DNA of 64,000 nucleotides from Streptomyces sp. NBC_00878 (GTDB lineage Bacteria; Actinomycetota; Actinomycetes; Streptomycetales; Streptomycetaceae), in assembly GCF_026341515.1 (NCBI RefSeq), contig NZ_JAPEOK010000001.1, positions 2,294,001-2,358,000 on the forward strand, in the 5' to 3' direction. Both the position numbers and the translations under genes were made by a program. Below are positions 12,925 to 31,742 of this stretch, piece by piece (position 1 is the first letter of the stretch; each line of letters starts with the position of its first letter). The notes beneath the pieces are model-generated. The model saw only the letters and a program-made list of their open reading frames with translations. It was not told where the DNA came from and did no database searches.

Positions 12925-15042
12925 TCAGAACGTGGTGAGGGCGATGACCTTGTTGTCATGCAGGAGGAAGATGCGGTTTCCGTCCGCGGTCAGGCGGTAA
13001 TCGTCGGTTCTGGGGAATTCGTACCGCCATTTCCGACTCCCGTCGGACGCCTGCGCGGCGTCGATCTCCATGGGGTCGGTTTGCTTGATGGGCCTGTCGA
13101 ACGTCCAGACCGCGTTCCCCTGTGGCAGAACCCGGCCCGCGTAGACGGCCGTCGTCGCGGAGGGATAGCCGGACCACGCCTGGCTGCCGTCGCGCCTGTC
13201 GAGGCGCACGGGGTAGAGGCCCTCCGTGGCGTAGAGCGCGCCCCCGGAGACCGTCGCCGGCCCCCACCACTCGCGATCGGTGCCTCCGTCGGGTCTCGCG
13301 CTCCAGATCCTCTCCCCGTCGCTGAGCCGCAGCGCGTCCAGGGTCCTGCCGTTGAGGTACACGGTGTCGCCTTGGACGGCCGGGCGGCGTGGATTCACCT
13401 CGTCGACGCGCTCGACCCGGCTCCAGGCCGTACGGCCGCTGCTCGTGTCCACCGCCAGGCAGTTGCCGTCGGATGTCGCCACGACCAGCCTGCCCCGGCC
13501 GGTGGCGCCGCGGGGGACCAGCTTCTCGCGGAAGTCGGCCGGGACCGTCACCGTCCACCGGACCTTCGCGTCCGAGCGGCCGACGCTGCGCAGCCGGTCG
13601 TCCTTCGTGACGAAGTACACCGCCTCCGTGTCGGCGGCGAGAAACAACGCCGCCTCGGCCCCCGGGCAGGTCCACTTGGGTTCACCGGTGGACGGGACGT
13701 ACGTACGCAACGCGCCCTGGCTGTCCGTGCCCACGACCAGCCGGTCCGAGAGCGACAGATAGCCGCTCTTCGCCACGATGCGGGGCGCGTTCCAGCGTCG
13801 GGTGCCGTCCTTGACGTCAAAGGCCCCGAGGCCGCCGCTCGCGGCGCCGAACACGAGGACGTCGCGCACCGGCAGCAGATACGGCGAGTAGATGTCCGCC
13901 GCGTTCTCCAGTGTCCAGAGGGTGGTCGGCCGGCCCACGGAGCCGGACACCCGGTCGACTCCGCCGTCCAGTTTCGCCATGGGGGTGCGCACCGCCGACG
14001 GAACGGCGAACGGGTCGTTCGTCGCGTCGGCGCGCGTGCCGAGCCACCACGCCGTCGTGCCGCCCCCGGCGGCGACCACCACACCCGCGGTGGAGAGCCC
14101 GGTGAGCAGCCGCCGCCGCGTCAACGGCCGTCTCCCGCCCGTCAGTTGCGCGGTGACCTCGGTGGTGAGCCGGTGGGCGCCGGTCTCCCGCTCCCTGATC
14201 GCGTCGGCGAGCCGCCCCCGGCTCCAGACCCGGACGGCACGCCTGGACACGGCCGCGGCCCGCGCGATCTGGGCGGGTACGGGACGCGCCGCCGGATCCT
14301 TCGCCAGACAGGGCTCGATGAGATCCCTCAACTGCGGCTCGACGCCGTCCAGTTGTGGCTCCCCGTGGACGACCTCGTACTGCACCACGGCCACATGGGA
14401 ACCCTCGAACGTACGCTTTCCGGTGGCCGCGTACGCGAGCACCGCGCCCAGCGAGAACACGTCCGCGGCCGGGGTGACGCGCCGTCCGAGCGCCTGCTCC
14501 GGTGCGCCGTAGCCCGGAGTGAAGAGCGCCTGGCCGGTGGTGGTGAGGGTCAGCCCGTGTTCGGGACGGGCGATGCCGAAGTCGATGACGCGTGGCCCGT
14601 CCGAGGTGAGCACGATGTTCGGCGGCTTGAGATCACGGTGGACGAAGCCCGCCGCGTGGATGTCGGCGAGGGTGTGGGCGAGGGACGCGGCCAGGGCGCG
14701 CAGCGCGGGCTCGGTGAGCGGGCCGTACGCCTCGACCGCCTCGTCCAGGGTGAGACCGGCCAGGAACTCGCTGGCGATCCACGGGCGGGTGCCCTCGGTC
14801 CGCGCCTCCAGTACGGCCGCGACTCCCCCGCTGCGCACGGCCTGTGCGGCCCGCGCCTCGCGCACGAAGCGCCTGCCGAGATCGATGTCGTGGGCGAGTT
14901 CGGGCCGCAGCACCTTGACCGCCGCCAGGGTGCCGTCGCCGCCCTGGCCGATGTAGACCTTGCCCATCCCGCCTTCGCCGAGGACGCCGAGGAGCCGGTA
15001 GGGGCCGAGGCGGACCGGGTCCCCGGTGCCGAGAGGGTTCAT
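12925..15042 (-). CDS. Transmembrane Ser/Thr protein kinase with PQQ-type beta-propeller sensor domain
   Basis: A 705-aa Hanks-type kinase. The glycine loop LGEGGMGKVY is at residues 21-30, the catalytic loop HRDLKPPN near 134, the DFG near 153, and an APEQ follows. A single transmembrane segment at about 310-333 (STAGVVVAAGGGTTAWWLG) leads into about 370 residues of PQQ/WD-like repeats, rich in W, G and D blades, predicted outside the membrane. It should autophosphorylate and phosphorylate Ser/Thr targets in response to an external signal. The ATG at 15042 is used because kinase homology starts at once. It lies 32 bp after the second kinase gene, in the same orientation, as a probable operon. 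Confidence 0.9.
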   Translation of the reverse strand: MNPLGTGDPVRLGPYRLLGVLGEGGMGKVYIGQGGDGTLAAVKVLRPELAHDIDLGRRFVREARAAQAVRSGGVAAVLEARTEGTRPWIASEFLAGLTLDEAVEAYGPLTEPALRALAASLAHTLADIHAAGFVHRDLKPPNIVLTSDGPRVIDFGIARPEHGLTLTTTGQALFTPGYGAPEQALGRRVTPAADVFSLGAVLAYAATGKRTFEGSHVAVVQYEVVHGEPQLDGVEPQLRDLIEPCLAKDPAARPVPAQIARAAAVSRRAVRVWSRGRLADAIRERETGAHRLTTEVTAQLTGGRRPLTRRRLLTGLSTAGVVVAAGGGTTAWWLGTRADATNDPFAVPSAVRTPMAKLDGGVDRVSGSVGRPTTLWTLENAADIYSPYLLPVRDVLVFGAASGGLGAFDVKDGTRRWNAPRIVAKSGYLSLSDRLVVGTDSQGALRTYVPSTGEPKWTCPGAEAALFLAADTEAVYFVTKDDRLRSVGRSDAKVRWTVTVPADFREKLVPRGATGRGRLVVATSDGNCLAVDTSSGRTAWSRVERVDEVNPRRPAVQGDTVYLNGRTLDALRLSDGERIWSARPDGGTDREWWGPATVSGGALYATEGLYPVRLDRRDGSQAWSGYPSATTAVYAGRVLPQGNAVWTFDRPIKQTDPMEIDAAQASDGSRKWRYEFPRTDDYRLTADGNRIFLLHDNKVIALTTF

Positions 15043-15074
15043 CGGAGGTGTCCTTATCCGGGAGGGCGAGGCGG

Positions 15075-17240
15075 TCACCTGAGCGGGTAGGCGGCCAGCT
15101 GGTCCTTGTCCACAGCGAGGATCAGCCGCGCCTGCGCGAACTCGTAGAACTGCGTACCTGTCGTTCTGTACGTGAGTACGGGCGCGTGGTCCGCCAGACT
15201 CACCGCCCGCAGTTGCAGCCCGTTCTTGTAGTACGCGTGGCGGGTGCCGAGGACCGGTCGCCAGATGGTGTAGGCCTCGTCCGCCTCGTTTGTCGTCTCG
15301 GTCCACAGGACCTTGCCCCGTTCCGCGTCGACGGCCGTGAGCCCGATGCCCGACCCGACGGTGTACAGCACACCCTTGCTCAGCGTCGGCGGGCCGTAGA
15401 TCTGCCCGAGCTCGGTGGCCCACGCCTGTGTTCCGTCACTCAGTCTCCGTGCCTGGAGCTGGGAACCACCGAGGTAGAGGTACTTGTCGTCCATGGCCAA
15501 CTCGCTCCGGAGCGCCTCGGGGACGTTGACGTTGTACGGCATGTCCCACAGGGCCTCTCCGCTGCGGGTGTCACGTACGACGACGTCCGTCTGCTGCTCG
15601 GCGAGCACCTGGAAGGTCACCAGGTGGTCGCCGACGGCCTTCGCGGCGGGGAAGTTGAGCCGTCGGCTGTCGCTTGCCCGCCGCGGCAGCGGCTGCGTCC
15701 AGCGCGTCTTTCCGGTCCTGAGGTCGGCGGCGCGCAGGGTCCAGGTCTGTGAGGGCAGAAAGCCGTCGTCCCGCGCGACCTCTCCGTAGCCCGCCGCCAC
15801 GTACGCGACACCGTCGGAGATGCGCAGGAGCTGGTTCGCCTTGATGGGGAACGTGGCGTCCGCGAGGCTGGTCGAGGTCGGCCCCGCGCGGTCCTGGCCC
15901 TCGTTCCAGACATCGATCGACATCGACTCCCCCTTCGCGGCGAAGTCATGGTCGAGCAGGTACAACCGCCCGTCCCGCACCGCCGCCTGCCACCAGTTGA
16001 CCGAGGTGCGCACCTCCCGCTGCACCCGCCCGGTGGTCGGATCGAGGCGTTTGGCGGTCGTGTTCAACGGTAGCCAGATCGATCCGTCGGCCTGGTGGGG
16101 CTCGACCAGACCCCAGCCCAGCACGTCGAGGTCGTCGCCGTCGTGCTGCCACAGCGGATCGAGGTTGCGTGTCTGCTGGGTGACCTCGCTGACCGTGGCG
16201 GTGGCACGCCCTCGCTGCCACCACATGCCACCCGCGGCCGCGGTCACCGCGAGGGCCCCGACCGCGGTCAGGAGCCCGCGCCGCGAGGGGCCCGGCCCGG
16301 GCAGTGCGGTGACCGCGGAGGCGCTCGCCTCGACCGCCGGTGCGGCCAGCCGTTCGGGCACGATCCGCCACACGTCGGCGGCTCGCCGCCCGATCTGCGC
16401 GAGCAGGGCGTCGGGCAGGTGCTCGGCGAACTCGCCCGTCCCGTCGTGCAGTTGGGCCGTCAGTTCCGCGAGGCCCGGCCGCTTCTCCGGCTCCTTGGCC
16501 AGGCACCGGGCGAGCACGGGCACGAGCGGGGCCGGTACGCCGCGGAGGTCCGCGTCCGCGTACCGCACCCGGTACAGCAGATCCGCCGGCTGCCCGTGCC
16601 CGAACGGCGGGCGTGCGGTGGCCGCGTACACGAGCACCCCGGCGAGCGCGAAGACGTCACCGGCCGCGTCGTGCGCCTTCCCGGTCGCCTGCTCCGGGGA
16701 CATGAACGCCGGTGTGCCGACCGAGGCACCGGTACGGGTGAGCCGGTCGTCGCCGATGGCCCGCGCGATCCCGAAGTCGATGACCTTCGGGCCGTAGGCG
16801 GTGACGAGGATGTTGGACGGCTTGAGGTCGCGGTGCACGACGTCCGACCGGTGCAGCTGGTCGAGCGCCGAACACAGGGCGGCGCCCAGCGCCCGCACCG
16901 ACCTCTCGGGCAGCGGTCCCCCGCTCCGCACGGCCTCGTCGAGGGCCGGCCCGAGCACGAACTCGGTTGCCATCCACGGCGTTTCACCGAGCGGATCGGC
17001 CTCCATGACCCGGGCTCCGAACCGGTCTCCGATGACCCGGGCCGCGTCCACTTCGAGCCGGAACCGGGTACGGGCCGCCGGATCGGTGGCGATCCCGGCG
17101 TGCATGGTCTTGAGCGCGACCGTCCGGCCACCGGCGGTACGCGCCATGTACACGGTGCCCATGCCGCCGCTCCCGAGCCGGGCGACGAGCCGGTACGGGC
17201 CGAGGGTTGTCGGGTCGTCATGGGTGAGAGGAGTCGGCAT
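15075..17240 (-). CDS. Transmembrane Ser/Thr protein kinase with PQQ-type beta-propeller sensor domain
   Basis: A 721-aa paralogue of the kinase downstream. The glycine loop LGSGGMGTVY is at residues 22-31, the catalytic loop HRDLKPSN near 134, and DFGIARAIG follows. The transmembrane segment is at about 320-340 (LLTAVGALAVTAAAGGMWW), with a C-terminal repeat propeller of about 380 residues. The start at 17240 (MPTPLTHDD) is chosen because conserved sequence begins there; the frame extends upstream, but with arginine/proline-rich non-coding character. The two ectodomains differ in sequence, so duplication was probably followed by divergence of ligand specificity. It lies 61 bp after the pseudokinase. 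Confidence 0.9.
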   Translation of the reverse strand: MPTPLTHDDPTTLGPYRLVARLGSGGMGTVYMARTAGGRTVALKTMHAGIATDPAARTRFRLEVDAARVIGDRFGARVMEADPLGETPWMATEFVLGPALDEAVRSGGPLPERSVRALGAALCSALDQLHRSDVVHRDLKPSNILVTAYGPKVIDFGIARAIGDDRLTRTGASVGTPAFMSPEQATGKAHDAAGDVFALAGVLVYAATARPPFGHGQPADLLYRVRYADADLRGVPAPLVPVLARCLAKEPEKRPGLAELTAQLHDGTGEFAEHLPDALLAQIGRRAADVWRIVPERLAAPAVEASASAVTALPGPGPSRRGLLTAVGALAVTAAAGGMWWQRGRATATVSEVTQQTRNLDPLWQHDGDDLDVLGWGLVEPHQADGSIWLPLNTTAKRLDPTTGRVQREVRTSVNWWQAAVRDGRLYLLDHDFAAKGESMSIDVWNEGQDRAGPTSTSLADATFPIKANQLLRISDGVAYVAAGYGEVARDDGFLPSQTWTLRAADLRTGKTRWTQPLPRRASDSRRLNFPAAKAVGDHLVTFQVLAEQQTDVVVRDTRSGEALWDMPYNVNVPEALRSELAMDDKYLYLGGSQLQARRLSDGTQAWATELGQIYGPPTLSKGVLYTVGSGIGLTAVDAERGKVLWTETTNEADEAYTIWRPVLGTRHAYYKNGLQLRAVSLADHAPVLTYRTTGTQFYEFAQARLILAVDKDQLAAYPLR

Positions 17241-17301
17241 CGGGCTCTTGTCGTCCGGGGCTGTGGAGGACCGCGGCCGGATACGGCGTTCCCGGCCGTG
17301 C

Positions 17302-18204
17302 CTACGCTGGCAACTGCACCTCGGCCGCCAGCACGGAGGCCGACTGATGAGCGACGGCGGCGACGATCCGGGCGGGCAACCAGCCGACGCCGAGCAACGA
17401 GTCGGCCCGCGAGCCGACCCCCGCCCCCGCGGGAACGGCCGTGGGGACATCGGGCGCCAACAACGCGATGATGTCAGAGAGTTGCGGGCGATGGGCCGGT
17501 TCGCGGGCCAAACACCATGTCACGAGCGAGCGCAGCAGGGCCGGTATCTCCTCCCGCTCCGGCGTCGTGGAGCCCGTGGCGGCGTACGCGAGCGTCGCAC
17601 CCAGCGCGTACACGTCGCCCAGCGGAGACGGCTGTCCACCGGCGGCCTGCTCGGGCGCGAGGCTCCCGGCGTCGAGCCCCGGCACGTCCTGACGTGGGGC
17701 GCCGTCCGGCGCGGCGGCCCGGACCGCCCCGAAACAGCCGAGCCGGGGGCCGTCGGCGGCGAGCAGCACGGCGGCCGGGCAGAGCCCCGCGTGCGTCAGC
17801 TCCTGCCCGTGCAGCACGGCGAGTGTCTCGGCCAGCGCCACGGCGAGCGCTCGTACCGTCCGCTCGGGCAGGGGACCGCCGTTCACGGCGAGGGCGACGG
17901 GGAGCGGCAGCGCGGGCACATAGGGCCCGGCATGCCACGCCTCGCCGCCAGGGGCGGCGACTTCGGTTGCCGGAAGCACCCAGGGACCGAGGAGAAAGCG
18001 CGAGGCGTCGGCCTCGCGCATGAAACGCCGCGGGTCGGCCTTCGGCAGGGGTGTGCTCAGCAGTACGGTGCGGTCGCCGTCGGCGCTGCGGGCGATGAAG
18101 CGGCGCTCCGGGACGGGTGTGGGCCCGGAGGCTGTGGACCCGGAGGCGTCGGCGTCGAGGCGGGTGACGACCGTGTAGGGGCCGATCCGCCGTGTCGTGG
18201 TCAT
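17302..18204 (-). CDS. Pseudokinase (Hanks-fold, catalytic residues lost)
   Basis: A 300-aa protein that aligns with the kinase domains downstream: it starts RRIGPYTVVTRL, has a LAPEQAAGGQPSPLGDVYALGA activation-segment region, and a PAHRPQLSDII helix. The catalytic HRDLKPxN is replaced by HAGLCPAAV (near residue 140), DFG by CFG (near 153), and there is no GxGxxG loop. It should therefore not phosphorylate. It lacks a transmembrane segment and a propeller. As first gene of the run it may regulate or scaffold the two active kinases (inference). It could also simply be decaying, but the frame is intact and GC bias is normal. Confidence 0.82.
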   Translation of the reverse strand: MTTTRRIGPYTVVTRLDADASGSTASGPTPVPERRFIARSADGDRTVLLSTPLPKADPRRFMREADASRFLLGPWVLPATEVAAPGGEAWHAGPYVPALPLPVALAVNGGPLPERTVRALAVALAETLAVLHGQELTHAGLCPAAVLLAADGPRLGCFGAVRAAAPDGAPRQDVPGLDAGSLAPEQAAGGQPSPLGDVYALGATLAYAATGSTTPEREEIPALLRSLVTWCLAREPAHRPQLSDIIALLAPDVPTAVPAGAGVGSRADSLLGVGWLPARIVAAVAHQSASVLAAEVQLPA

Positions 18205-23464: not shown

Positions 23465-25960
23465 GTGGTGGGAAATCCCGGAGAGGTCACGACCATCGAT
23501 CCGGCCGGCTCCCCGGCCGGCCGCGACCCGGTGAGCGGCACCGAAAGCGTCCTCGCGGAGGTGCTCGCCGGTGTCGTCAAGGTCGAGCAGGTCCCCGTCG
23601 ACAGTCACTTCTTCGACGACCTCGGGGCCAACTCCCTGGTGATGGCGCACTTCTGTGCCCGGGTCAGGAAGCACCCCGATCTGCCGGCCGTGTCGATGCG
23701 GGACGTCTACGGCCACCCGACGATACGCGACCTGGCGGCGGCGCTCGCCGAGGTCCCGGACGAGCCGTCGGCGCCCGCGCCCGCACCGGCCGAAGCGCCC
23801 CCACCGGGCAGCACCGCACGGTATGTCCTGTGCGGAACACTGCAGTTCCTCGTCTTCGCGGCGTACTGCCTCCTGTCCGGGCTCATCACCACGCGGGGGT
23901 ACGAGTGGGTCTCGGCCGGGGACGGCGTGCTGGACATCTATCTGCGGTCGGCCGTCTTCGGCGGTGCCGTCTTCGTCGGTGTGTGCACGGTCCCGGTGGT
24001 GGCCAAGTGGGTGCTGATCGGCCGCTGGAAGGAGACCGAGTTCCCCGTCTGGAGCCTCGCGTACCTGCGCTTCTGGACCGTCAAGGCACTGCTGCACGCC
24101 AACCCGATGGTCATGTTCGCCGGCAACCCGCTCTACGTTCTCTATCTGCGGGCGCTCGGCGCGCGCATCGGCAAGAACGTCACGATCCTCTCCCACTCGG
24201 TCCCGGTCTGCACCGACCTGTTCACCGTCGGCGCGGGCACGGTGATCCGCAAGGACTCGTACTTCCTGTGCTACCAGGCGCACGCCGGGCGGATCCGCAC
24301 CGGCCCGGTGACCCTGGGCCGGGACGTCTTCGTCGGCGAGAAGACCGTGCTCGACATCGGCACCTCCATGGGCGACGGTTCCCAGCTCGGCCACGCGTCC
24401 GCGCTGTACGGCGGCGCCGCGGTGCCGGACGGACAGCACTGGCACGGCTCACCGGCCCAGCGCACGGACGTGGACTACGTACGGGTCGCGCCGGCGGACT
24501 GCGGCACCGCGCGCCGGGTGGGCTACGGCCTGGCCACCGTGCTCCAGACACTGTTCCTCTACGTGCCGCTCCTCGTCGGGGGTACGTACATGCTGCTCAC
24601 GGTGGCTCCCGCGCTCGACGTGCTGCTCGACCGGAACACGCGGCACATCACGTCGGCACGGTTCTACGCAGAGGCGCTCGGGCTGTCGCTCGCGCTCTTC
24701 CTGTGCTTCATCCTGATCGGCTTCGCCACCGTGTCCGTGGTGCCGCGGCTGCTGAACCGGCTCCTCGAACCGGACCGGGTCTATCCGCTCTACGGCTTCC
24801 ACTACTCGGTGCAGCGTGCCGTCGCGCGCCTGACCAACGTGAAGTTCTTCAAGTGGCTGTGCGGGGACAGCTCGTACATCGTCCACTACCTGCGGGCCCT
24901 CGGCTACGACCTCTCGCACGTCGAGCAGACCGGCTCCAACTTCGGTACGGAGGTGGCGCACGAGACGCCGTATCTGGCCTCCGTCGGCAGCGGCACGATG
25001 GTCGCGGACGGGCTGTCGATCATGAACGCCGAGTTCTCCGGCACGTCGTTCCGCGTCTCGCGCGCGACGATCGGGCCGCGGAACTTCCTCGGGAACCACA
25101 TCGCCTACCCCGCCGGGGGCCGCACCGGCGAGAACTGTCTGCTCGCGACGAAGGTCATGGTCCCGCTCGACGGCGAGATACGCGAGGGTGTCGGCCTGCT
25201 GGGCTCGCCGCCCTTCGAGATACCGCGGACCGTGGAGCGCGACACCCGCTTCGACCACCTCCGTGAGGGCGACGAACTGCGCCGCCGTCTCGCCGCGAAG
25301 AACCGCCACAACCTGCGCACCATGGGCCTGTTCCTGTTCATCCGGTGGCTGGACTGGTTCGCCATCACACTCCTCGGCTTCGCCGCCTTCGACCTGTACG
25401 GGGATCAAGGCGCCCTCGGCGGCCTGCTGGTCGGCGCGTCCCTGATCGTCGGCCTCGTGTTCACCACCGGCTACTACGTGCTGGTGGAGCGGCTGATCTG
25501 CCGGTTCCGTCCGCTGGAGCCGCGGCTGCACTCCATCTACGACCCGCTCTTCTGGAAGCAGGAGCGGCTGTGGAAGATCCCCGACCGGCACATCAGCGTC
25601 TACAACGGCACCCCGTTCAAGAACCTGGTCTGGCGGCTGCTCGGGGTCCGGATGGGACGCAGGGTCTTCGACGACGGCTGCTCCATCACCGAGCGGACGC
25701 TCACCGCCATCGGAAGCGACAGCACGCTCGGCGCGCACAGCAAGGTGCAGTCGCACTCGCAGGAGGACGGCACCTTCAAGTCCGACCACATCGAGATCGG
25801 CGACGGCGTCACGCTCGGCGTCGGCGCACTCGTCCACTACGGCGCGTCAATGGGGGATGCCGCCGTACTCGCTCCCGACTCCTTCCTGATGAAGGGCGAG
25901 GAAGTGCCGGCGGGGGCCCGCTGGGGCGGGAATCCGGCAGTCGCTCCGCGACACGCCTGA
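23465..25960 (+). CDS. Pls-type membrane polyamino-acid synthetase half: carrier domain plus six-helix, three-domain C-terminus
   Basis: An 831-aa protein. Residues 20-95 are a peptidyl-carrier domain with the pantetheine serine at S57 (FFDDLGANSLVM). Three pairs of membrane helices follow (for example QFLVFAAYCLLSGLITT, VPLLVGGTYMLLTVAP, FAITLLGFAAFDLYG), each followed by a soluble domain. The first and last contain hexapeptide beta-helix repeats (VGAGTVIRKDSYF; IEIGDGVTLGVGALVHYG). This is the T-TM-C1-TM-C2-TM-C3 layout of epsilon-poly-L-lysine synthetase (Pls/PosA, TIGR02353), but the adenylation domain is missing and supplied by the next gene. The start is GTG 23465, or 23468, after AAGGAGA. 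The tandem C domains are thought to form isopeptide bonds between side-chain amine and carboxylate. Confidence 0.88.
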   Translation: MVGNPGEVTTIDPAGSPAGRDPVSGTESVLAEVLAGVVKVEQVPVDSHFFDDLGANSLVMAHFCARVRKHPDLPAVSMRDVYGHPTIRDLAAALAEVPDEPSAPAPAPAEAPPPGSTARYVLCGTLQFLVFAAYCLLSGLITTRGYEWVSAGDGVLDIYLRSAVFGGAVFVGVCTVPVVAKWVLIGRWKETEFPVWSLAYLRFWTVKALLHANPMVMFAGNPLYVLYLRALGARIGKNVTILSHSVPVCTDLFTVGAGTVIRKDSYFLCYQAHAGRIRTGPVTLGRDVFVGEKTVLDIGTSMGDGSQLGHASALYGGAAVPDGQHWHGSPAQRTDVDYVRVAPADCGTARRVGYGLATVLQTLFLYVPLLVGGTYMLLTVAPALDVLLDRNTRHITSARFYAEALGLSLALFLCFILIGFATVSVVPRLLNRLLEPDRVYPLYGFHYSVQRAVARLTNVKFFKWLCGDSSYIVHYLRALGYDLSHVEQTGSNFGTEVAHETPYLASVGSGTMVADGLSIMNAEFSGTSFRVSRATIGPRNFLGNHIAYPAGGRTGENCLLATKVMVPLDGEIREGVGLLGSPPFEIPRTVERDTRFDHLREGDELRRRLAAKNRHNLRTMGLFLFIRWLDWFAITLLGFAAFDLYGDQGALGGLLVGASLIVGLVFTTGYYVLVERLICRFRPLEPRLHSIYDPLFWKQERLWKIPDRHISVYNGTPFKNLVWRLLGVRMGRRVFDDGCSITERTLTAIGSDSTLGAHSKVQSHSQEDGTFKSDHIEIGDGVTLGVGALVHYGASMGDAAVLAPDSFLMKGEEVPAGARWGGNPAVAPRHA

Positions 25961-26007
25961 GGCTCCACGGCACAGAGGAAGAAAGACAACAGGGGGGAAG
26001 AAAGACC

Positions 26008-28467
26008 ATGGACACGATCCCGAAGTGGACGTTCGATCCGGTGCCCGGCAACGCGGAGTACGAAGTGCCGCTGCCCGAGGGCCTGTTGAGGGAGCCCAGC
26101 GCTCTCCTGGCCGCACACGCCAGGGTCCTCGCCGCACTGTCCGGCGAGCGCGAGGTGACCGTCGGGTACGTGGCGGCGAAGGGCGAGCGGCCGAGGCCGT
26201 GCCCGCTGACCGTCGGTACCGGCTCCTGGCGTGACCTGCTGGAGCTCGCGCGTGCGGCCGAGGCGGACCTGGCCGCGGATGAGGCGGGGGACAAACGGGC
26301 CGCGGACGGGGCGGGGGACGAACCAGCCGGGTACGGGGCGGGGAGCGAACCGGCCGCGGACGGGGCAGGGAGCGAACCGGCCGCGGACGGGGCAGGGAAC
26401 GAACCGGCCGCGTTCGAGACGGTGCTGGATCCGCACGGCGGCCGGGGCCCCGAGGACACCGTGCTGCACGTGTCGTTCGAGGACCGCACACTGCGCCTGC
26501 GCTACCGCACCGACGTCCTCGACGCCGACGCAGCCGCCCGAATCGCGGGCTACCACCTCACCGCGCTCTCCCTGCTCACCGCCGATCCGGACGCCGCACC
26601 CGGCCGGCAGAGTCTGCTGTCCGACGACGAACTCCTCTTCCAGCTCGACGGGCTGGCCGGACCGGACCGCGAGCTGCCGGACCGCCGGGTCCACGAGCTG
26701 TTCGAGGCAAGGGTGTCGGCGCATCCCGACGCCGTCGCGGCCGTGCGCGGCGACGAACGGTGGACGTACCGCGAGCTCAACTCCCGCGCGAACCAGCTCG
26801 GCCGGGCCCTGCTGACCCGCGGGCTGCGCCGCGAGGACGTCGTCGCCGTGGTCATGGAACGCGATCTGGACTGGATGGCCGCCGTCCTCGCCGTCCTCAA
26901 GGCGGGCGGCGTGTATCTGCCGATCGAGCCGCACTTCCCCGCCGAGCGCATCGCGGCCACCCTCGCGCGCGCCGGCTGCGAACTCGTCCTGACGGAACAC
27001 GGCAGCACCACCACCCTGGACGAGGCGGCCACGGGCACCCGCACCCTGCACGTCGACACGGCCTACGCGGAGAACCACCCCGACAGCGACCTCGGCATCC
27101 CGGTCGCCGCCGGCCAACTCGCCTACATCTACTTCACCTCCGGCTCCACCGGCGAGCCCAAGGGCGCGATGTGCGAGCACGCGGGCTTCCTCAACCACGT
27201 CCACGCCAAGCTCGACGACCTGGGCGTCGGCGAGGGCCAGGTGGTCGCCCAGACCGCGCCCCAGTGCTTCGACATCTCGCTGTGGCAGCTGGTCTCCGCG
27301 CTCCTGGTCGGCGGCCGGACCCTGCTGGTCGAACAGGAGGTCATCCTGGACGTCCCCCGGTTCGTGGACACCATCACGCAGGGCCGGGTCAACGTGCTCC
27401 AGGTGGTCCCGTCGTACCTCGAAGCCGTGCTCGCCGAGTTGGAGCAGCGCCCACGCGAACTGCCGGACCTGCGCTGTGTGTCGGTGACCGGGGAGGCGGT
27501 GAAGAAGGAGCTCGTCGAGCGCTGGTTCGCGACCGAGCCCGGGATCCGGCTGGTCAACGCGTACGGGCTGACCGAGACCTCGGACGACACCAACCACGAG
27601 GTCATGGAGCGGGTGCCGGACCAGGACCGGGTCCCGCTCGGGCGGCCGGTCGCCAACGTACGCGTGTACGTCGTCGACGAGGACCTGTGCCCGGTCCCCC
27701 TCGGCGCGCCCGGCGAGATCGTCTTCTCCGGGGTCTGCGTCGGCCGCGGGTACGTCAACGACCCCGAGCGGACCAGGGCGGCGTTCACGTCCGATCCGTA
27801 CCGGCCGGGCGAGCGGCTGTACCGCAGCGGTGACCACGGCCGCTGGCTGCCCGACGGCAAGCTGGAGTTCCTCGGCCGCCGGGACAACCAGGTCAAGATC
27901 CGCGGCTTCCGTATCGAGATCGGCGAGATCGAGAACGCGCTGCTGCGGGTGCCCGGCGTCCGGGACGGTGCCGTGGTGGTCGTGGGGGGCACGCGGCTGG
28001 TGGCGTTCTGCGCCGGGTCCGGCCCGCTCGGCTCCGGATCCGACCGGCCCGGCGCGGGGGCCGTGCGGGAGCGGCTGGCCGTGTCGCTGCCCGCGTACAT
28101 GGTCCCGTCGGCCGTCCACTGGCGGGAGAGCCTGCCGCTGACCGCCAACGGCAAGACCGACCGCAAGACGCTGACCGCGCTCGCCGGGGAGCTCGACTCC
28201 GCCGGGATCGGTTCGCGCGCCGGTCAGGGCCCGCGCGCGCCCGGCACCGCGAACGAGCGCCGGGTGGCGGCGGCCTGGGCCGAGGTGCTCGGCATCCCCA
28301 CGGACCGGATCGGCCGCCGGGACCACTTCTTCGACCGCGGCGGCACCTCGCTCGCGGCGGTGAAGCTGGCGATCGCCCTGGACCGGGCGATCACCCTCAA
28401 GGACGTCACCCGCCACCCGGTCCTCGCGGACCTGGCGGGACTCCTGGAACCGCCCGCCCCCTCCTGA
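26008..28467 (+). CDS. NRPS adenylation-carrier (A-T) protein, predicted diaminopropionate-activating
   Basis: An 819-aa protein. Residues 1-90 and 136-220 resemble the tail of a condensation domain without its HHxxxDG, interrupted by a Gly/Ala repeat (91-135). The adenylation core shows A3 YFTSGSTGEPKG near 375, A5 NAYGLTET near 516, and A10 NGKTDRKTL near 713. A carrier domain ends the protein (FFDRGGTSLAAVKL, serine near 778). By hand alignment to PheA the specificity residues read DIWQSTADDK; the acidic pair near the end suits a basic side-chain amine. Neighbouring Dap-synthesis genes point to L-2,3-diaminopropionate. It probably loads its own carrier and passes the residue to the membrane protein. 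The ATG at 26008 follows a purine-rich AGGGGGG site. Confidence 0.9.
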   Translation: MDTIPKWTFDPVPGNAEYEVPLPEGLLREPSALLAAHARVLAALSGEREVTVGYVAAKGERPRPCPLTVGTGSWRDLLELARAAEADLAADEAGDKRAADGAGDEPAGYGAGSEPAADGAGSEPAADGAGNEPAAFETVLDPHGGRGPEDTVLHVSFEDRTLRLRYRTDVLDADAAARIAGYHLTALSLLTADPDAAPGRQSLLSDDELLFQLDGLAGPDRELPDRRVHELFEARVSAHPDAVAAVRGDERWTYRELNSRANQLGRALLTRGLRREDVVAVVMERDLDWMAAVLAVLKAGGVYLPIEPHFPAERIAATLARAGCELVLTEHGSTTTLDEAATGTRTLHVDTAYAENHPDSDLGIPVAAGQLAYIYFTSGSTGEPKGAMCEHAGFLNHVHAKLDDLGVGEGQVVAQTAPQCFDISLWQLVSALLVGGRTLLVEQEVILDVPRFVDTITQGRVNVLQVVPSYLEAVLAELEQRPRELPDLRCVSVTGEAVKKELVERWFATEPGIRLVNAYGLTETSDDTNHEVMERVPDQDRVPLGRPVANVRVYVVDEDLCPVPLGAPGEIVFSGVCVGRGYVNDPERTRAAFTSDPYRPGERLYRSGDHGRWLPDGKLEFLGRRDNQVKIRGFRIEIGEIENALLRVPGVRDGAVVVVGGTRLVAFCAGSGPLGSGSDRPGAGAVRERLAVSLPAYMVPSAVHWRESLPLTANGKTDRKTLTALAGELDSAGIGSRAGQGPRAPGTANERRVAAAWAEVLGIPTDRIGRRDHFFDRGGTSLAAVKLAIALDRAITLKDVTRHPVLADLAGLLEPPAPS
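26278..26412. repeat. In-frame 27-bp minisatellite in the A-T gene
   Basis: Imperfect 27-bp units encode a 9-residue Gly-Ala-Gly-Ser-Glu-Pro-Ala-Ala-Asp motif, giving a flexible acidic linker of about 45 residues inside the N-terminal region. The two central copies are identical at the protein level. Copy number can change without frameshift. Confidence 0.75.
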
Positions 28468-28619
28468 ACCACGGCCGACCACACGAGAAGCGACGAAAAG
28501 TCGCAACGGAAAAGTCGCAAGAGACGGACGAGACGGAACCGAAGGCAGCTACGACACCCATGACCGGAACACCGCACACCCGCACGACCGAACACCGCAA
28601 GGCCGAAAGGAAGCACCTG

Positions 28620-29624
28620 ATGTCGTCTTCATCTCCGACGTTGCTCCCGGACGTCGACCTGCGCCCCGGCAGCCCTCCGATCCTGCGTGCCGACGCCGCG
28701 GGCAACACGGCGGGCTGGGCCGCCGAACACCGCGACGCGCTGCGGGCCGTCGTCGCCGAGCACGGCTGCGTCCTGGTCCGTGGCCTGGAGCTGCGCGACC
28801 CCGCCACGACCGCGACCGTCTTCCGCCGGCTGGCCGCCGGCCTGATGCCCGACCGGGAGTCCTTCGCGCCCCGGCGGACGTACGAGGACGGCGTGTACTC
28901 CTCGTCCAAGTGGCCGCCGAACCAGCAGATGTGCATGCACCACGAGCTGAGTTACGCCCTGGAGTTCCCCTCGCTGATGCTGTACGCCTGCCTCGACGCG
29001 CCCGACCAGGGCGGGGCCACCGCGGTCGCCGACGCACCGTCCGTGCTCGCCGCGCTGCCCGCCTCCCTCACGGAACGCTTCGAGCGCGAGGGCTGGCTGC
29101 TCACCCGCACGTACAACGACGAGATCGGGGCGACCCTCACCGAGGCCTTCGGCACCGAGGACCGCGCGGCCGTCGAGCACTACTGCCGTACCCACGCGAT
29201 CGAGTTCGCCTGGCAGTACGACGGCTCCCTGCGCACCCGGCAGCACCGCAGCGCCGTGGTCCGCCACCCCGTCACCCGGCGGCGCTGCTGGTTCAACCAG
29301 ATCGCGTTCCTCAACGAGTGGACGATGGACCCCGAGGTGCACGAGTACCTGGTGGACGTCTACGGCTCCGACGGTCTCCCCTTCAACACCCGCTACGGGA
29401 ACGGCGATCCGATCGGCGAGGACGTCGCAGGGACCATCAACGAGGTGTACGAGGCGCACACCGCGCGCGAGCCGTGGCGCTCCGGCGATCTGCTGCTCGT
29501 CGACAACATCCGTACCGCACACAGCAGGGAGCCGTTCGAGGGCCCGCGCGAGGTGCTCGCCGCGCTCGCCGACCCGGTCCGGCTGACCGACTGCGCACCG
29601 ACCACCGAAGTGAGGGCCGCATGA
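28620..29624 (+). CDS. TauD/SyrP-like Fe(II)/2-oxoglutarate-dependent dioxygenase
   Basis: A 334-aa non-haem iron oxygenase of the TauD/clavaminate-synthase superfamily. The metal motif is HHELSY near residues 106-111 (H-x-E, as in clavaminate synthase and SyrP, rather than H-x-D), with a distal histidine in NIRTAHSREPF near 300 and an arginine shortly after to bind 2-oxoglutarate. SyrP-type members beta-hydroxylate amino acids while bound to carrier proteins. Between the A-T protein and the Dap genes it most likely hydroxylates the activated residue (inference). The ATG at 28620 is preferred over one at 28560 because of GAAAGGA upstream. Its stop overlaps the next start (ATGA). Confidence 0.87.
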   Translation: MSSSSPTLLPDVDLRPGSPPILRADAAGNTAGWAAEHRDALRAVVAEHGCVLVRGLELRDPATTATVFRRLAAGLMPDRESFAPRRTYEDGVYSSSKWPPNQQMCMHHELSYALEFPSLMLYACLDAPDQGGATAVADAPSVLAALPASLTERFEREGWLLTRTYNDEIGATLTEAFGTEDRAAVEHYCRTHAIEFAWQYDGSLRTRQHRSAVVRHPVTRRRCWFNQIAFLNEWTMDPEVHEYLVDVYGSDGLPFNTRYGNGDPIGEDVAGTINEVYEAHTAREPWRSGDLLLVDNIRTAHSREPFEGPREVLAALADPVRLTDCAPTTEVRAA

Positions 29625-30691
29625 CCACCACGGACGAGAACGGCACGACCACCACGGAACCCGGGACGCTCATGCCTCCCCCGTTCTCCGTCATCTCCGG
29701 CGCCCAGGTCCACGAGGCCCTGCACGGGCGGGAGTCCGAGATCGTCGACCTGGTCGAGACCGTGTACCGCGTGCACGGCGCGGGCGACTCGGTGAACCCG
29801 CCGTCGTACTTCCTGAAGTTCCCGGACCGGCCGTCGTCCCGGATCATCGCGCTGCCCGCGTCGATCGGCGGGCCGGTGGGGGTGGACGGCCTGAAGTGGG
29901 TCTCCAGCTTCCCCGGCAACACGGCGAGCGGTCTGCCGCGCGCCTCGGCGGTGCTGATCCTCAACGACCACGACACGGGCTACCCGTTCGCGTGTCTGGA
30001 GAGCTCGATCATCAGTGCCACCCGGACGGCGGCCTCGGCGGCCCTCGCGGCCGACCGGCTCAGCCGCGACCGCGCCCGGCCCACCCGGGTCGGGTTCATC
30101 GGTACCGGGCTGATCGCCCGCTACATCCACACCCATCTGGCCGCCACCGGCTGGTCGTTCGAGGAGACCGGGGTGTACGACCTGTCGGCGGACAGCGCGG
30201 CCGGCTTCAGCGGCTACCTGGAGCGGTCGGGCACCAAGGGCAGGATCGCCGTGCACGACAGCGCCGAGTCGCTGATCCGCTCCAGTGACCTGCTGGTCTT
30301 CGCCACCGTCGCGGCGAAGCCGCACGTCCACGACCCGGCGTGGTTCTCCCACGCCCCGCTGGTGCTGCATGTGTCGCTGCGCGACCTCGCGCCCGAGATC
30401 CTGCTCGACTCGGCCAACTTCGTGGACGACGTCGAGCACTGTCTGAAGGCCGAGACCTCGCCGCACCTGGCCGAACAACTCACCGGAAGCCGCGACTTCA
30501 TCGACGGCACGCTGGACGACGTGCTCTGCGGGCGGGTGACCGTACCGGCGGACCGGACGGTGGTGTTCTCGCCCTTCGGCCTCGGGGTCCTCGACCTCGC
30601 GGTCGGCAAGTTCGTCCACGACGAGGTGGCCCGCAGGGGCGAGCCGCACGTCGTCGACGGCTTCTTCCACGAACTGCGCCGGTACGGCTGA
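29621..30691 (+). CDS. SbnB-like dehydrogenase for L-2,3-diaminopropionate biosynthesis
   Basis: A 356-aa member of the ornithine cyclodeaminase/mu-crystallin fold. GLKWVSSFPGN, RASAVLILNDHDTGYPFAC and the Rossmann GFIGTGLIARY near residue 157 closely follow SbnB as I know it. SbnB oxidatively hydrolyses N-(1-amino-1-carboxy-2-ethyl)-glutamate to Dap and 2-oxoglutarate with NAD. It overlaps the dioxygenase gene by four bases and is followed by its partner SbnA. About 30 N-terminal residues are Thr-rich and not part of the fold. Confidence 0.92.
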   Translation: MTTTDENGTTTTEPGTLMPPPFSVISGAQVHEALHGRESEIVDLVETVYRVHGAGDSVNPPSYFLKFPDRPSSRIIALPASIGGPVGVDGLKWVSSFPGNTASGLPRASAVLILNDHDTGYPFACLESSIISATRTAASAALAADRLSRDRARPTRVGFIGTGLIARYIHTHLAATGWSFEETGVYDLSADSAAGFSGYLERSGTKGRIAVHDSAESLIRSSDLLVFATVAAKPHVHDPAWFSHAPLVLHVSLRDLAPEILLDSANFVDDVEHCLKAETSPHLAEQLTGSRDFIDGTLDDVLCGRVTVPADRTVVFSPFGLGVLDLAVGKFVHDEVARRGEPHVVDGFFHELRRYG

Positions 30692-30752
30692 CCGGCGGGC
30701 ACCGCGCCGCGCGAGGAGCGGGGCGCGGTGCCGCATGAAGGAGGGGGACATC

Positions 30753-31742
30753 ATGCCCGTCATTTCCGAACCAACACAGTTCAACGAGGACGAGCTCTAC
30801 GTTGACCTGCGAGCGGCACTGGGGCTGCCGCTCTTCCTGAAGTGCGAGGGATTCAACTTCGCGGGCTCGATCAAGCTCAAGGCCGCCACCGAGATGGTGA
30901 ACGCCGCCGAGCGCGACGGCGTGCTGCGGCCGGGATCCGTCCTGGTCGAGTCGTCGTCCGGGAACCTCGGCGTGGCGCTGAGCATGATCGCGGCGAGCCG
31001 TGGCTACGGGTTCCTGTGCGTCACCGACTCACGCTGCAATCCGGCGACCCGGCGGATGATGGAGGCACTGGGCAGCGTGGTCCACGTGATCGACGAGCCC
31101 GACCTGCACGGCGGCTTCCTGGGCGCGCGGATCGCGTACGTCAGCGCAGTGTGCGCCTCGGACGACCGGTACGTGTGGCTCAACCAGTACGCCAACGAGG
31201 GCAACTGGCGCGCGCACTACCGCACCACGGCACCGGCCATCGCCCGCCGTTTCCCGCACCTGGACGTGCTGTTCGTCGGGGCCGGCACCACCGGCACCCT
31301 GATGGGCTGCGCGCGCTGGTTCTGGCAGCAGCGGCGCCGCGTGCGGATCGTGGCCGTGGACACGGTCGGATCGGTGACCTTCGGGGGGCCGCCAGCCCCC
31401 CGGATGATCCCCGGCCTGGGCATGGCCGTCCGTCCGCCGCTGCTCGACGAGTCGTACGTGGACGACGTGGTGCACGTCCCGGAGCCGGACACGCTGCGTG
31501 CCTGCCGTCGACTGGCCGCCCGGGGCTTCCTGTTCGGCGGCTCCACCGGCACGGTGGTCAGCGGCGCGTCCGAATGGCTGGCCCGGTACGGGCGGCGGGA
31601 GCTCACGGCGGTGGCGATCGCCCCGGACCTCGGCGAGCGCTACCTCGACACGGTCCACCGCCCGGGCTGGGGGGTGAACGTCCACGGCGAGGACACGCTC
31701 GGCGGCTCCGGCGAGCTGGCCGCCCTGTCGCACCCCGCCTGA
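30753..31742 (+). CDS. SbnA-like PLP-dependent synthase for L-2,3-diaminopropionate biosynthesis
   Basis: A 329-aa cysteine-synthase-fold enzyme. The PLP lysine lies in GSIKLKAA near residue 40, the substrate loop SSSGNLG near 67, and GAGTTGTL binds the PLP phosphate. SbnA uses O-phospho-L-serine and L-glutamate to make the N-linked intermediate that SbnB cleaves to Dap. The start 30753 follows AAGGAGGGGGA. An in-frame ATG at 30735 would bury that site. It is the last gene of the Dap/polymer operon, so monomer supply is encoded with the machinery that uses it. Confidence 0.92.
   Translation: MPVISEPTQFNEDELYVDLRAALGLPLFLKCEGFNFAGSIKLKAATEMVNAAERDGVLRPGSVLVESSSGNLGVALSMIAASRGYGFLCVTDSRCNPATRRMMEALGSVVHVIDEPDLHGGFLGARIAYVSAVCASDDRYVWLNQYANEGNWRAHYRTTAPAIARRFPHLDVLFVGAGTTGTLMGCARWFWQQRRRVRIVAVDTVGSVTFGGPPAPRMIPGLGMAVRPPLLDESYVDDVVHVPEPDTLRACRRLAARGFLFGGSTGTVVSGASEWLARYGRRELTAVAIAPDLGERYLDTVHRPGWGVNVHGEDTLGGSGELAALSHPA

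What the first reader, a model, noticed from the sequence alone, without database searches (positions are those of the whole stretch)
23465..31742. Split Pls-type polyamino-acid synthetase wired to its own diaminopropionate supply
Seen: the membrane half (six helices, three soluble domains) of an epsilon-poly-lysine-synthetase-like enzyme begins with a carrier domain (S57) but has no adenylation domain. The next gene is a separate A-T protein. A SyrP-like dioxygenase and SbnB/SbnA Dap-synthesis genes follow, with coupled or short spacing. There is no canonical condensation, thioesterase or export gene. Known: Pls is a single A-T-TM-C chain; poly-Dap and, as I recall, a split epsilon-poly-beta-lysine system have been reported. 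Inference: the A-T protein activates Dap, which is perhaps hydroxylated on the carrier, and hands it to the membrane carrier for isopeptide chain growth, giving poly- or oligo-(hydroxy)Dap. The two-carrier relay plus dioxygenase is the novel part.
Basis: partly seen in the sequence, partly recalled or inferred. Interest (0 to 1): 0.88.

Follow-up and report, generated by a model that had tools for sequence, protein, structure and literature searches.

The report
Split membrane polyamino-acid synthetase, Dap-fed
A conserved five-gene operon in Streptomyces appears to build short chains from the unusual amino acid diaminopropionate, using a membrane polymer-making enzyme that has lost its own activating domain and is instead supplied by a separate activating protein plus an oxidising enzyme; the same supply genes also occur beside ordinary peptide assembly lines.

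Summary
23465-31742 encodes a carrier plus six-helix Pls/PosA protein (TIGR02353, 803 bits, cut-off 423) without an adenylation (A) domain, a separate A-T protein, a TauD-type Fe/2OG oxygenase, SbnB and SbnA. It is not chance: among 100 other Streptomyces genomes drawn evenly, 32 split-size synthetase genes have the A-T beside them in 30, the oxygenase in 29, SbnB in 27 and SbnA in 28; 0 of 40 single-chain synthetases fetched do. The A pocket reads DIWQST[A/T]DD in nearly all relatives, two positions from a PvdL (Dab-type) pocket. In a quick tree the split proteins nest among single chains mostly with a poly-Dap-type code, and one of the four basal branches keeps a wrecked cis A domain. New here: A-T, oxygenase, SbnB and SbnA also sit in canonical NRPS clusters without the membrane gene, and 6 of 12 such A-T clusters examined show an A-less C-T module (2 of 20 control NRPS stretches do; p about 0.03-0.06, modest). 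Reading: a portable in-trans loading unit for Dap, probably oxidised on its own carrier, with the membrane protein as one acceptor. Product, oxidation chemistry and carrier-to-carrier transfer are unproven. A widespread, apparently undescribed variant of a known kind.

The parts
23465..25960 (+). Pls/PosA-family membrane condensation protein without A domain: carrier (S57), then six TM helices and three soluble domains (T-TM)
   Evidence: TIGR02353 803 bits vs 423, PF00550 29-94; S57 invariant 26/26; hydropathy; AlphaFold model; Foldseek hexapeptide transferases
26008..28467 (+). stand-alone A-T protein; residues about 1-220 resemble the end of a condensation domain; A code D-I-W-Q-S-T-A-D-D plus A10 Lys (K716); carrier serine S781; no TE
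   Evidence: PF00501, PF13193, PF00550; start; nine code positions; K716 and S781 invariant 21/21
28560..29624 (+). TauD/TfdA (SyrP/AmbC-like by name) Fe(II)/2OG oxygenase; internal start 28620 possible
29621..30691 (+). SbnB, 2,3-diaminopropionate biosynthesis
   Evidence: TIGR03944 409 bits vs 327; only hit over cut-off in the genome
30735..31742 (+). SbnA, 2,3-diaminopropionate biosynthesis (alternative start 30753)
   Evidence: TIGR03945 377 bits vs 350

Best explanation
The operon is a split, in-trans-loaded branch of the Pls/poly-Dap synthetases. SbnB and SbnA make L-Dap (family assignment shown; substrate inferred). The A-T protein activates Dap and holds it on its own carrier, where the Fe/2OG oxygenase modifies it (inferred from strict linkage and from the SyrB1-type precedent). 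The residue is then supplied to the carrier (S57) of the membrane protein, either from carrier to carrier or by the same A domain charging it in trans. The membrane protein's three soluble domains join residues through side-chain amide bonds, giving a short Dap-based isopeptide oligomer, probably with oxidised units (inferred). The A-T/oxygenase/SbnB/SbnA quartet is a portable loading unit: in other genomes it sits in canonical NRPS clusters, and half of the A-T clusters examined were seen to contain an A-less C-T module.
For: Profiles. Linkage: of 49 split loci with enough flank, SbnB (>=50% identity) near 47, SbnA (>=34%) near 49, oxygenase (>=55%) near 48; 0 of 4 single-chain loci. Even draw: A-T 30/32, oxygenase 29/32, SbnB 27/32, SbnA 28/32 split loci versus 0/40 single-chain loci (Fisher 4e-17 for the oxygenase). 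Acidobacteria and Gemmatimonadetes MAGs have diverged SbnA/SbnB upstream; one pair, L051's, was profile-checked and is over cut-off. Code near-invariant; a PvdL A domain aligned to it reads DIWELTADD (that it takes Dab is recalled). Ancestry: split proteins nest among single chains, of which eight of nine read have a DFE[C/A]LS-type code with the Phe reported for poly-Dap synthetase. L081 keeps a fused A domain with broken A3/A8 and no A10, next to an A-T ORF with intact A3-A8 that runs off the contig. Orphan T-TM: 5 of 6 genomes carry A-T and oxygenase elsewhere (A-T background 56 of 150; binomial 0.03). Quartet in 11 loci without the membrane gene in the ~20 kb read; A-less C-T in 6 of 12 A-T clusters. 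Trans A-T precedents: PMC8949500.
Against: No biochemistry. No carrier-to-carrier transferase seen in the operon. About half of relatives have a hydrolase-type TE behind the A-T carrier, which could mean release of a free amino acid rather than relay. Chain length and linkage are unknown. The pocket differs from the PvdL one at two positions, so Dap is inferred. The A-less-module argument is modest: 6 of 12 A-T clusters against 2 of 20 control NRPS stretches (p 0.03), or 6 of 45 against 2 of 69 C-T-C intervals (p 0.056); the control stretches are shorter, A-less modules also occur without the quartet, and G080/G113 are near-identical. G026, which has A-T and oxygenase but no SbnB, showed an NRPS without a clear A-less C-T. 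L043's genome has an orphan T-TM but neither A-T nor oxygenase; L116 lacks the oxygenase and SbnB nearby. Five A-T loci have the oxygenase but no SbnB. The nesting of the split group has SH-aLRT 89-90 only, and L081's join with L073 is flagged as a possible long-branch artefact.
Confidence: 0.6

Rival explanations
1. Simple trans-loaded poly-Dap synthetase: the A domain charges both carriers with unmodified Dap, the membrane protein makes a homopolymer, and the oxygenase/A-T carrier makes only a starter, end-cap or pendant unit (compare the comb-like Dap polymer of Takehara 2021, seen only as a citation in PMC10522769 and PMC9606270).
For: Grouping with poly-Dap-type single chains; orphan T-TM proteins in genomes with a distant A-T; tandem carriers in some relatives.
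Against: The oxygenase is as tightly linked as the A-T (29/32 vs 30/32) and accompanies it in all 16 loci without the membrane gene, so it looks integral.
Confidence: 0.21
2. Free-monomer route: A-T plus oxygenase, with a TE where present, releases an oxidised Dap as a free amino acid or antimetabolite, which the membrane protein then ligates.
For: TE with GHSSG fused to the A-T in 18 loci, and in 12 of 30 A-T loci of the even draw.
Against: TE is absent in the window and in about half of relatives; A-less C-T modules in 6 of 12 A-T clusters suggest direct delivery, though the control makes this modest.
Confidence: 0.13
3. Hetero-ligation: the A-T loads a different (hydroxylated) residue and free Dap is only the nucleophile, giving a small hetero-peptide rather than a Dap oligomer.
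For: Hydroxylation of Dap itself is chemically awkward; Pls-type chemistry uses a free amine as acceptor (recalled).
Against: Acidic pair at code positions 330/331 and a PvdL-like pocket point to a diamino acid on the carrier; the wrecked A domain of L081 has a poly-Dap-type code.
Confidence: 0.06

Closest known systems
Poly(L-diaminopropionic acid) synthetase of Streptomyces albulus PD-1 (PMC4668381; parts 1-2 of 5 read)
   Same: Same membrane domain type; Dap made by cysteine-synthase-like and cyclodeaminase-like proteins; the window protein groups with single chains whose code has the Phe reported for this enzyme
   Different: Single A-T-TM chain; no oxygenase or separate A-T in the parts read; in the window the A domain is on another protein and closest to canonical NRPS A domains. 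Its own sequence was not in the tree
Pls (epsilon-poly-L-lysine) and PosA (delta-poly-L-ornithine) (PMC10522769; parts 1, 3, 4 of 8 and passages read)
   Same: TIGR02353 domain, six helices; three beta-helices packed as one unit in the published PosA model
   Different: A domain in the same chain; 25-32% identity to the window's membrane protein for 38 of the 40 fused Streptomyces loci (53% for L159 and L160)
SyrB1/SyrB2/SyrC/SyrE split module (PMC8949500, section 4.1 read)
   Same: Stand-alone A-T, Fe/2OG enzyme acting on the carrier-bound residue, and an A-less acceptor carrier
   Different: Acceptor is a membrane polymerase; HHE site, so oxygenase rather than halogenase; no SyrC seen in the window genes scanned
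Trans A-T complementation in albicidin, cystobactamid, ramoplanin and enduracidin (PMC8949500, section 4.1 read)
   Same: A-T in trans serves a module with a missing or dead A domain; ramoplanin/enduracidin A-T also bears an N-terminal extension
   Different: Those acceptors are multimodular NRPSs; here also a Pls-type enzyme, with Dap genes and an oxygenase in the same cassette

Membership tests
Pls/PosA homopolyamino-acid synthetases | TIGR02353 domain above curated cut-off | tested here: met
   803.1 vs 423.1 bits
Pls/PosA homopolyamino-acid synthetases | six helices and three soluble domains | tested here: met
   six hydrophobic regions; model with three strand-rich domains
Pls/PosA homopolyamino-acid synthetases | carrier domain with Ser in the same chain | tested here: met
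   PF00550 29-94, S57 26/26
Pls/PosA homopolyamino-acid synthetases | A domain in the same chain | tested here: not met
   no AMP-binding match in the 831-aa protein; separate gene
Pls/PosA homopolyamino-acid synthetases | isopeptide homopolymer product | not testable with these tools
   needs expression and mass spectrometry
Poly-Dap synthetase (PDAPs) | own Dap-activating A domain (Phe at second code position) | tested here: not met
   window code DIWQSTADD on another protein; Phe criterion from PMC10522769
SbnA/SbnB Dap synthases | both profiles above curated cut-off | tested here: met
SyrB1-type split module | stand-alone A-T plus Fe/2OG enzyme gene plus A-less acceptor carrier | tested here: met
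SyrB1-type split module | Fe/2OG halogenase site (no acidic ligand; recalled) | tested here: not met
   HHE retained 17/17: oxygenase type
SyrB1-type split module | dedicated aminoacyl shuttle (SyrC) | tested here: inconclusive
   none among the operon and flanking ORFs scanned; a fused TE in about half of relatives; rest of genome not searched

The most novel reading that the evidence does not exclude
The A-T/oxygenase/SbnB/SbnA quartet is a portable delivery unit for an oxidised Dap residue that plugs into A-less carriers of two unrelated condensation machines: canonical NRPS modules and a membrane polymerase of Pls type. The acceptors lose their own A domain once the unit is present. With the membrane partner it makes a new polymer class, an isopeptide oligo(oxidised-Dap).
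Probability: 0.37. Interest if true: 0.86.

Novelty: new variant of a known kind. Interest (0 to 1): 0.73.

Why it matters
30 of 101 Streptomyces genomes searched, this one included, carry a split-size synthetase, so this is a common pathway whose product I could not find described. It would give a Pls-type polymerase fed by a modifying, in-trans loader, a route to new polycationic polymers, and a handle on how the Pls membrane domain receives its aminoacyl donor, since donor loading and condensation are here on separable proteins. The same loader genes in canonical NRPS clusters offer a second system in which the oxidised Dap residue could be read off a peptide.

Tried and rejected
Rejected: chance adjacency. 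Rejected: frameshift of a fused gene; the 831-aa frame has its own RBS-like start, and the 120 best homologues listed are 795-881 aa long. Rejected: the A-T as a Pls A domain merely cut off; its top PDB matches are canonical NRPSs and relatives carry a C-domain remnant. Rejected: the TE as a universal part (absent in window).

Led nowhere: identifying 9n1u, the closest A-domain structure; searches for the pocket code DIWELTADDK, for TIGR02353 or S. avermitilis nrps7. PMC11204786 (passage) describes Dap-containing lipopeptides but the terms for A domain, hydroxylase and dioxygenase do not occur; PMC11643055 (passage) has Dap only in its reference list. The VIA-align list for the oxygenase does not name SyrP, which says nothing about kinship.

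Control results told against my reading: my first control for A-less modules held almost no NRPS and was useless; a second, 20 NRPS stretches of 20 kb fetched by C-domain hits, has 2 A-less C-T in 69 intervals (L215, L216) with no A-T of this kind in the stretch. One of these controls (L217) has an oxygenase at 45% identity. I lowered the best explanation from a draft 0.62 to 0.60 and the novel case from 0.40 to 0.37 for this.

Of 12 A-T clusters examined (11, G101): A-less C-T in G101, G020, G064, G080, G113, G036; a carrier preceded by a 960-971 bp stretch matching neither my A nor C profile in G144 and G088; no A-less module in the part read for G006, G069 and G026; no C domain in the stretch read for G049. 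L187 and others were not extended.

That nothing is in print rests only on the PMC open-licence searches; Yamanaka 2022 and Takehara 2021 were seen only as citations.

Dropped before counts: 10 of 59 split loci and 6 of 10 single-chain loci for short flanks; of its 10 loci without A-T, four (L063, L070, L071, L075) are truncated or partial and were not followed, and L047 and L072 were searched with the orphans but counted apart (their genomes have A-T and oxygenase elsewhere). In some searches two of 43 single-chain hits (G014; G060 contig 15) were not fetched and the genome's own (L090) was read apart, so the control is 40. L097 and L110 run off their contigs and count as misses. Split and single-chain were first told apart by open-frame length (under 1130 or over 1170 aa), then by the A-domain hit upstream. 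In the tree 15 of 86 similar split rows were thinned out, and the label 'split+AT' was given to every row not otherwise named, a few of which (such as L063, L071) are cut before the A-T.
Full report
WHAT IS THERE. The window lies at G000:C1:2294001-2358000 of an 11.1-Mb Streptomyces-type genome. Five co-directional genes fill 23465-31742. The first (831 aa) has a carrier domain and then a full-length TIGR02353 domain (803 bits, cut-off 423) and no A domain. Hydropathy gives six membrane regions. AlphaFold (pLDDT 76.9, pTM 0.79) gives helices in those places and three strand-rich domains between and after them; Foldseek's best solved matches are hexapeptide acyltransferases, each covering part of the model. 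A three-beta-helix picture was published for PosA (PMC10522769, part 4 read). The second gene starts at 26008 and encodes an N-terminal stretch that in relatives resembles the end of a C domain (13 of 21 match PF00668 at E up to 1, the window's own does not), then A and T. The third is a TauD-type oxygenase with H127, E129 and H321 invariant in 17 of 17 sequences (that these are the iron ligands is recalled). The fourth and fifth are SbnB and SbnA over their curated cut-offs. Upstream lies a BrkB-like gene on the other strand, downstream an AidB-like dehydrogenase and, further on, sulfate-assimilation genes, so the operon is a compact island.

IS IT MORE THAN CHANCE. A scan of one-genome-per-species contigs with the membrane protein gave 79 loci. 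Of 59 with a matching A-T, 49 have enough flank; SbnB is near 47, SbnA near 49 and the oxygenase near 48 (SbnA threshold 34% identity, two of the 49, L051 and L056, being below 40%). For an unbiased test I searched 101 Streptomyces genomes, this one included, with TIGR02353: 55 have a hit over cut-off, 76 hits in all, 33 of split size (in 30 genomes) and 43 single-chain. I fetched 32 split and 40 single-chain neighbourhoods. Split: A-T 30/32, oxygenase 29/32, SbnB 27/32, SbnA 28/32; single-chain: 0/40 for oxygenase, SbnB and SbnA (Fisher 4e-17 for the oxygenase and 4e-15 for SbnB). Misses among split loci: L097 and L110 run off the contig, L116 lacks oxygenase and SbnB, L118 and L122 are orphans. 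In Acidobacteria and Gemmatimonadetes MAGs diverged SbnA/SbnB lie upstream of the membrane gene; the pair of one of them, L051, was scanned and is over cut-off.

WHICH AMINO ACID. Nine code positions placed by motif anchors read DIWQST[A/T]DD in all A-T proteins of the first set except L062 (DIWQVTADD) and in all A-T rows of the second except L183; the A10 lysine is invariant in 21 of 21. A PvdL A domain aligned to the window's reads DIWELTADD, two differences; that this PvdL domain takes Dab is recalled. With SbnA/SbnB beside it the simplest reading is Dap. SbnB is the only one over cut-off in this genome. The genome's other Pls-family gene is a single chain with code DAESIGT..; calling it lysine-type rests on recall.

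ANCESTRY. In a quick maximum-likelihood tree rooted on nine Pls-type single chains, the split proteins lie within a larger group whose other members are single chains; of nine whose code was read, eight have DFE[C/A]LS.. and one (L050) DAESIGTVV. PMC10522769 gives Phe at that second position for poly-Dap synthetase. The nodes that nest the split group have SH-aLRT 89-90. One of its four basal branches is L081 with L073 of the same MAG, a pairing the program flags as a possible long-branch artefact. L081 (4764-9239) still has an A domain in front of tandem carriers, with a poly-Dap-type code, but its A3 and A8 motifs are broken and the A10 part is gone; an A-T ORF with code DIWQSTADD and intact A3-A8 motifs begins 88 bp later and runs off the contig. 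That fits a fused Dap synthetase whose own A domain decayed once an A-T in trans took over. It is one MAG contig, a lead and not proof.

IN TRANS. Six loci with a membrane protein but no A-T nearby (L032, L037, L040, L043, L118, L122) were checked at genome level: five of six genomes carry a matching A-T and oxygenase elsewhere; L043's has neither. A matching A-T is found in 56 of 150 Streptomyces genomes, so five of six has a binomial probability of 0.03: suggestive only.

THE QUARTET ELSEWHERE. The A-T, oxygenase, SbnB and SbnA also occur without the membrane protein. In L165, from the genome of locus L037 (titled Streptomyces ochraceiscleroticus), the quartet lies behind a canonical NRPS ending C-T-C-A-T-TE, with no A in the C-T module. 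A search of 150 genomes with that A-T gave 56 with a close match. I fetched 20 neighbourhoods, chosen mainly for lacking the membrane gene: five have it, fifteen do not. With L165 that makes 16 loci without it in the stretch read: the full quartet in 11 (L165, L172, L174, L176, L178, L179, L180, L182, L185, L186, L187), and A-T plus oxygenase without SbnB in 5 (L173, L175, L177, L181, L183). Domain scans of 11 extended regions plus L165 found an A-less C-T module in G101, G020 and G064 (no A signal above noise) and in G080, G113 and G036 (only a scar of A-domain sequence, 26-51 bits); G080 and G113 have near-identical layouts. G144 and G088 have a carrier preceded by a 960-971 bp unassigned stretch; none was seen in the parts read for G006, G069, G026 and G049. 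Control: 20 NRPS stretches fetched by C-domain hits show 2 A-less C-T among 69 C-T-C intervals, against 7 of 46 in the A-T loci, one of them counted twice; Fisher 0.03 per cluster and 0.056 per interval. So the tie between quartet and A-less module is real-looking but modest, and rests on its fit with the Pls case.

HOW IT PROBABLY WORKS. Shown: domain content, linkage, near-invariant pocket, invariant carrier serines on both proteins, missing cis A domain in the membrane protein. Inferred: SbnA/SbnB make Dap; A-T loads it; the oxygenase acts on the A-T-bound residue, as the Fe/2OG enzyme does in SyrB1-type systems and TauD-type enzymes do on carrier-bound Asp (PMC8949500, section 4.1 and passages); the residue reaches S57; the membrane protein makes isopeptide bonds. 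Not known: whether transfer is carrier-to-carrier or the A domain charges both carriers; what the oxygenase makes (from general chemistry, free beta-hydroxy-Dap is a hemiaminal that should lose ammonia, so desaturation or an N-acylated hemiaminal must be considered); chain length. A TE with GHSSG is fused behind the A-T carrier in 18 loci of the first set, and 12 of 30 A-T loci of the even draw show the motif (16 have a tail long enough); Pfam calls it a thioesterase in the two scanned. Its role (editing, release or transfer) is open, and the window lacks it.

NOVELTY. Single-chain Dap synthetase, Pls structure and trans A-T modules are all known. Papers read in part (PMC4668381 parts 1-2; PMC10522769 parts 1, 3, 4 and passages; PMC9606270 passages; PMC8949500 section 4.1 and passages) and ten library searches show no split Pls-type synthetase, no oxygenase in such a system, and no quartet. 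[quoted passage not shown] A potato-scab proteome paper notes an SbnB near an SbnA gene and an NRPS gene, produced with tubers (PMC11479980 passage); I did not check whether it is this operon. I therefore call it a new variant of a known kind.

Noticed in passing
L038, L039, L041, L046, L053, L074: A Kutzneria/Kibdelosporangium/Amycolatopsis clade; five of the six A-T proteins were read and have Thr instead of Ala at code position 322 (L046's was not read). A threonine-synthase-like PLP enzyme follows SbnA in L039, L041, L046 and L074 (only L039's was scanned, below curated cut-offs); perhaps another diamino acid. One clade, so one event.
   Followed up: partly
L163 and L164 (plasmids of Streptomyces sp. 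CdTB01 and S. mirabilis P16B-1): T-TM genes on plasmids with no annotated A-T, SbnA or SbnB in the 20 kb shown (that gene table is incomplete); on the CdTB01 plasmid beside cation-diffusion transporters and a copper-resistance gene.
   Followed up: no
L036, L039, L043, L048, L072, L081: Two or three tandem carrier motifs ahead of the membrane domain in some relatives.
   Followed up: no
L047, L072: T-T-TM plus oxygenase with no close A-T or SbnA/SbnB, next to an AMP-binding ligase (exosortase-type acyl-CoA ligase in L072, scanned); an A-T carrier fragment seems to survive in L072, which looks like decay.
   Followed up: partly
G000:C1:8829070-8831112 (L090): A second, single-chain Pls-family gene in the same genome with code DAESIGT.. 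and no SbnA/SbnB or oxygenase in the 13 kb read.
   Followed up: partly
L173, L175, L177, L181, L183: A-T (same code, except L183) plus oxygenase without SbnB; a different amino-acid supply is possible.
   Followed up: no
L215, L216: A-less C-T modules in control NRPS stretches with no A-T of this kind in the 20 kb read.
   Followed up: no
window 12925-18204: Three overlapping kinase-like ORFs on the minus strand; two have Ser/Thr kinase plus PQQ-propeller domains, the third is below the Pfam cut-off.
   Followed up: no
L055, L045, L081: In Pseudonocardia, single-chain poly-Dap-like synthetases sit close to split ones.
   Followed up: no
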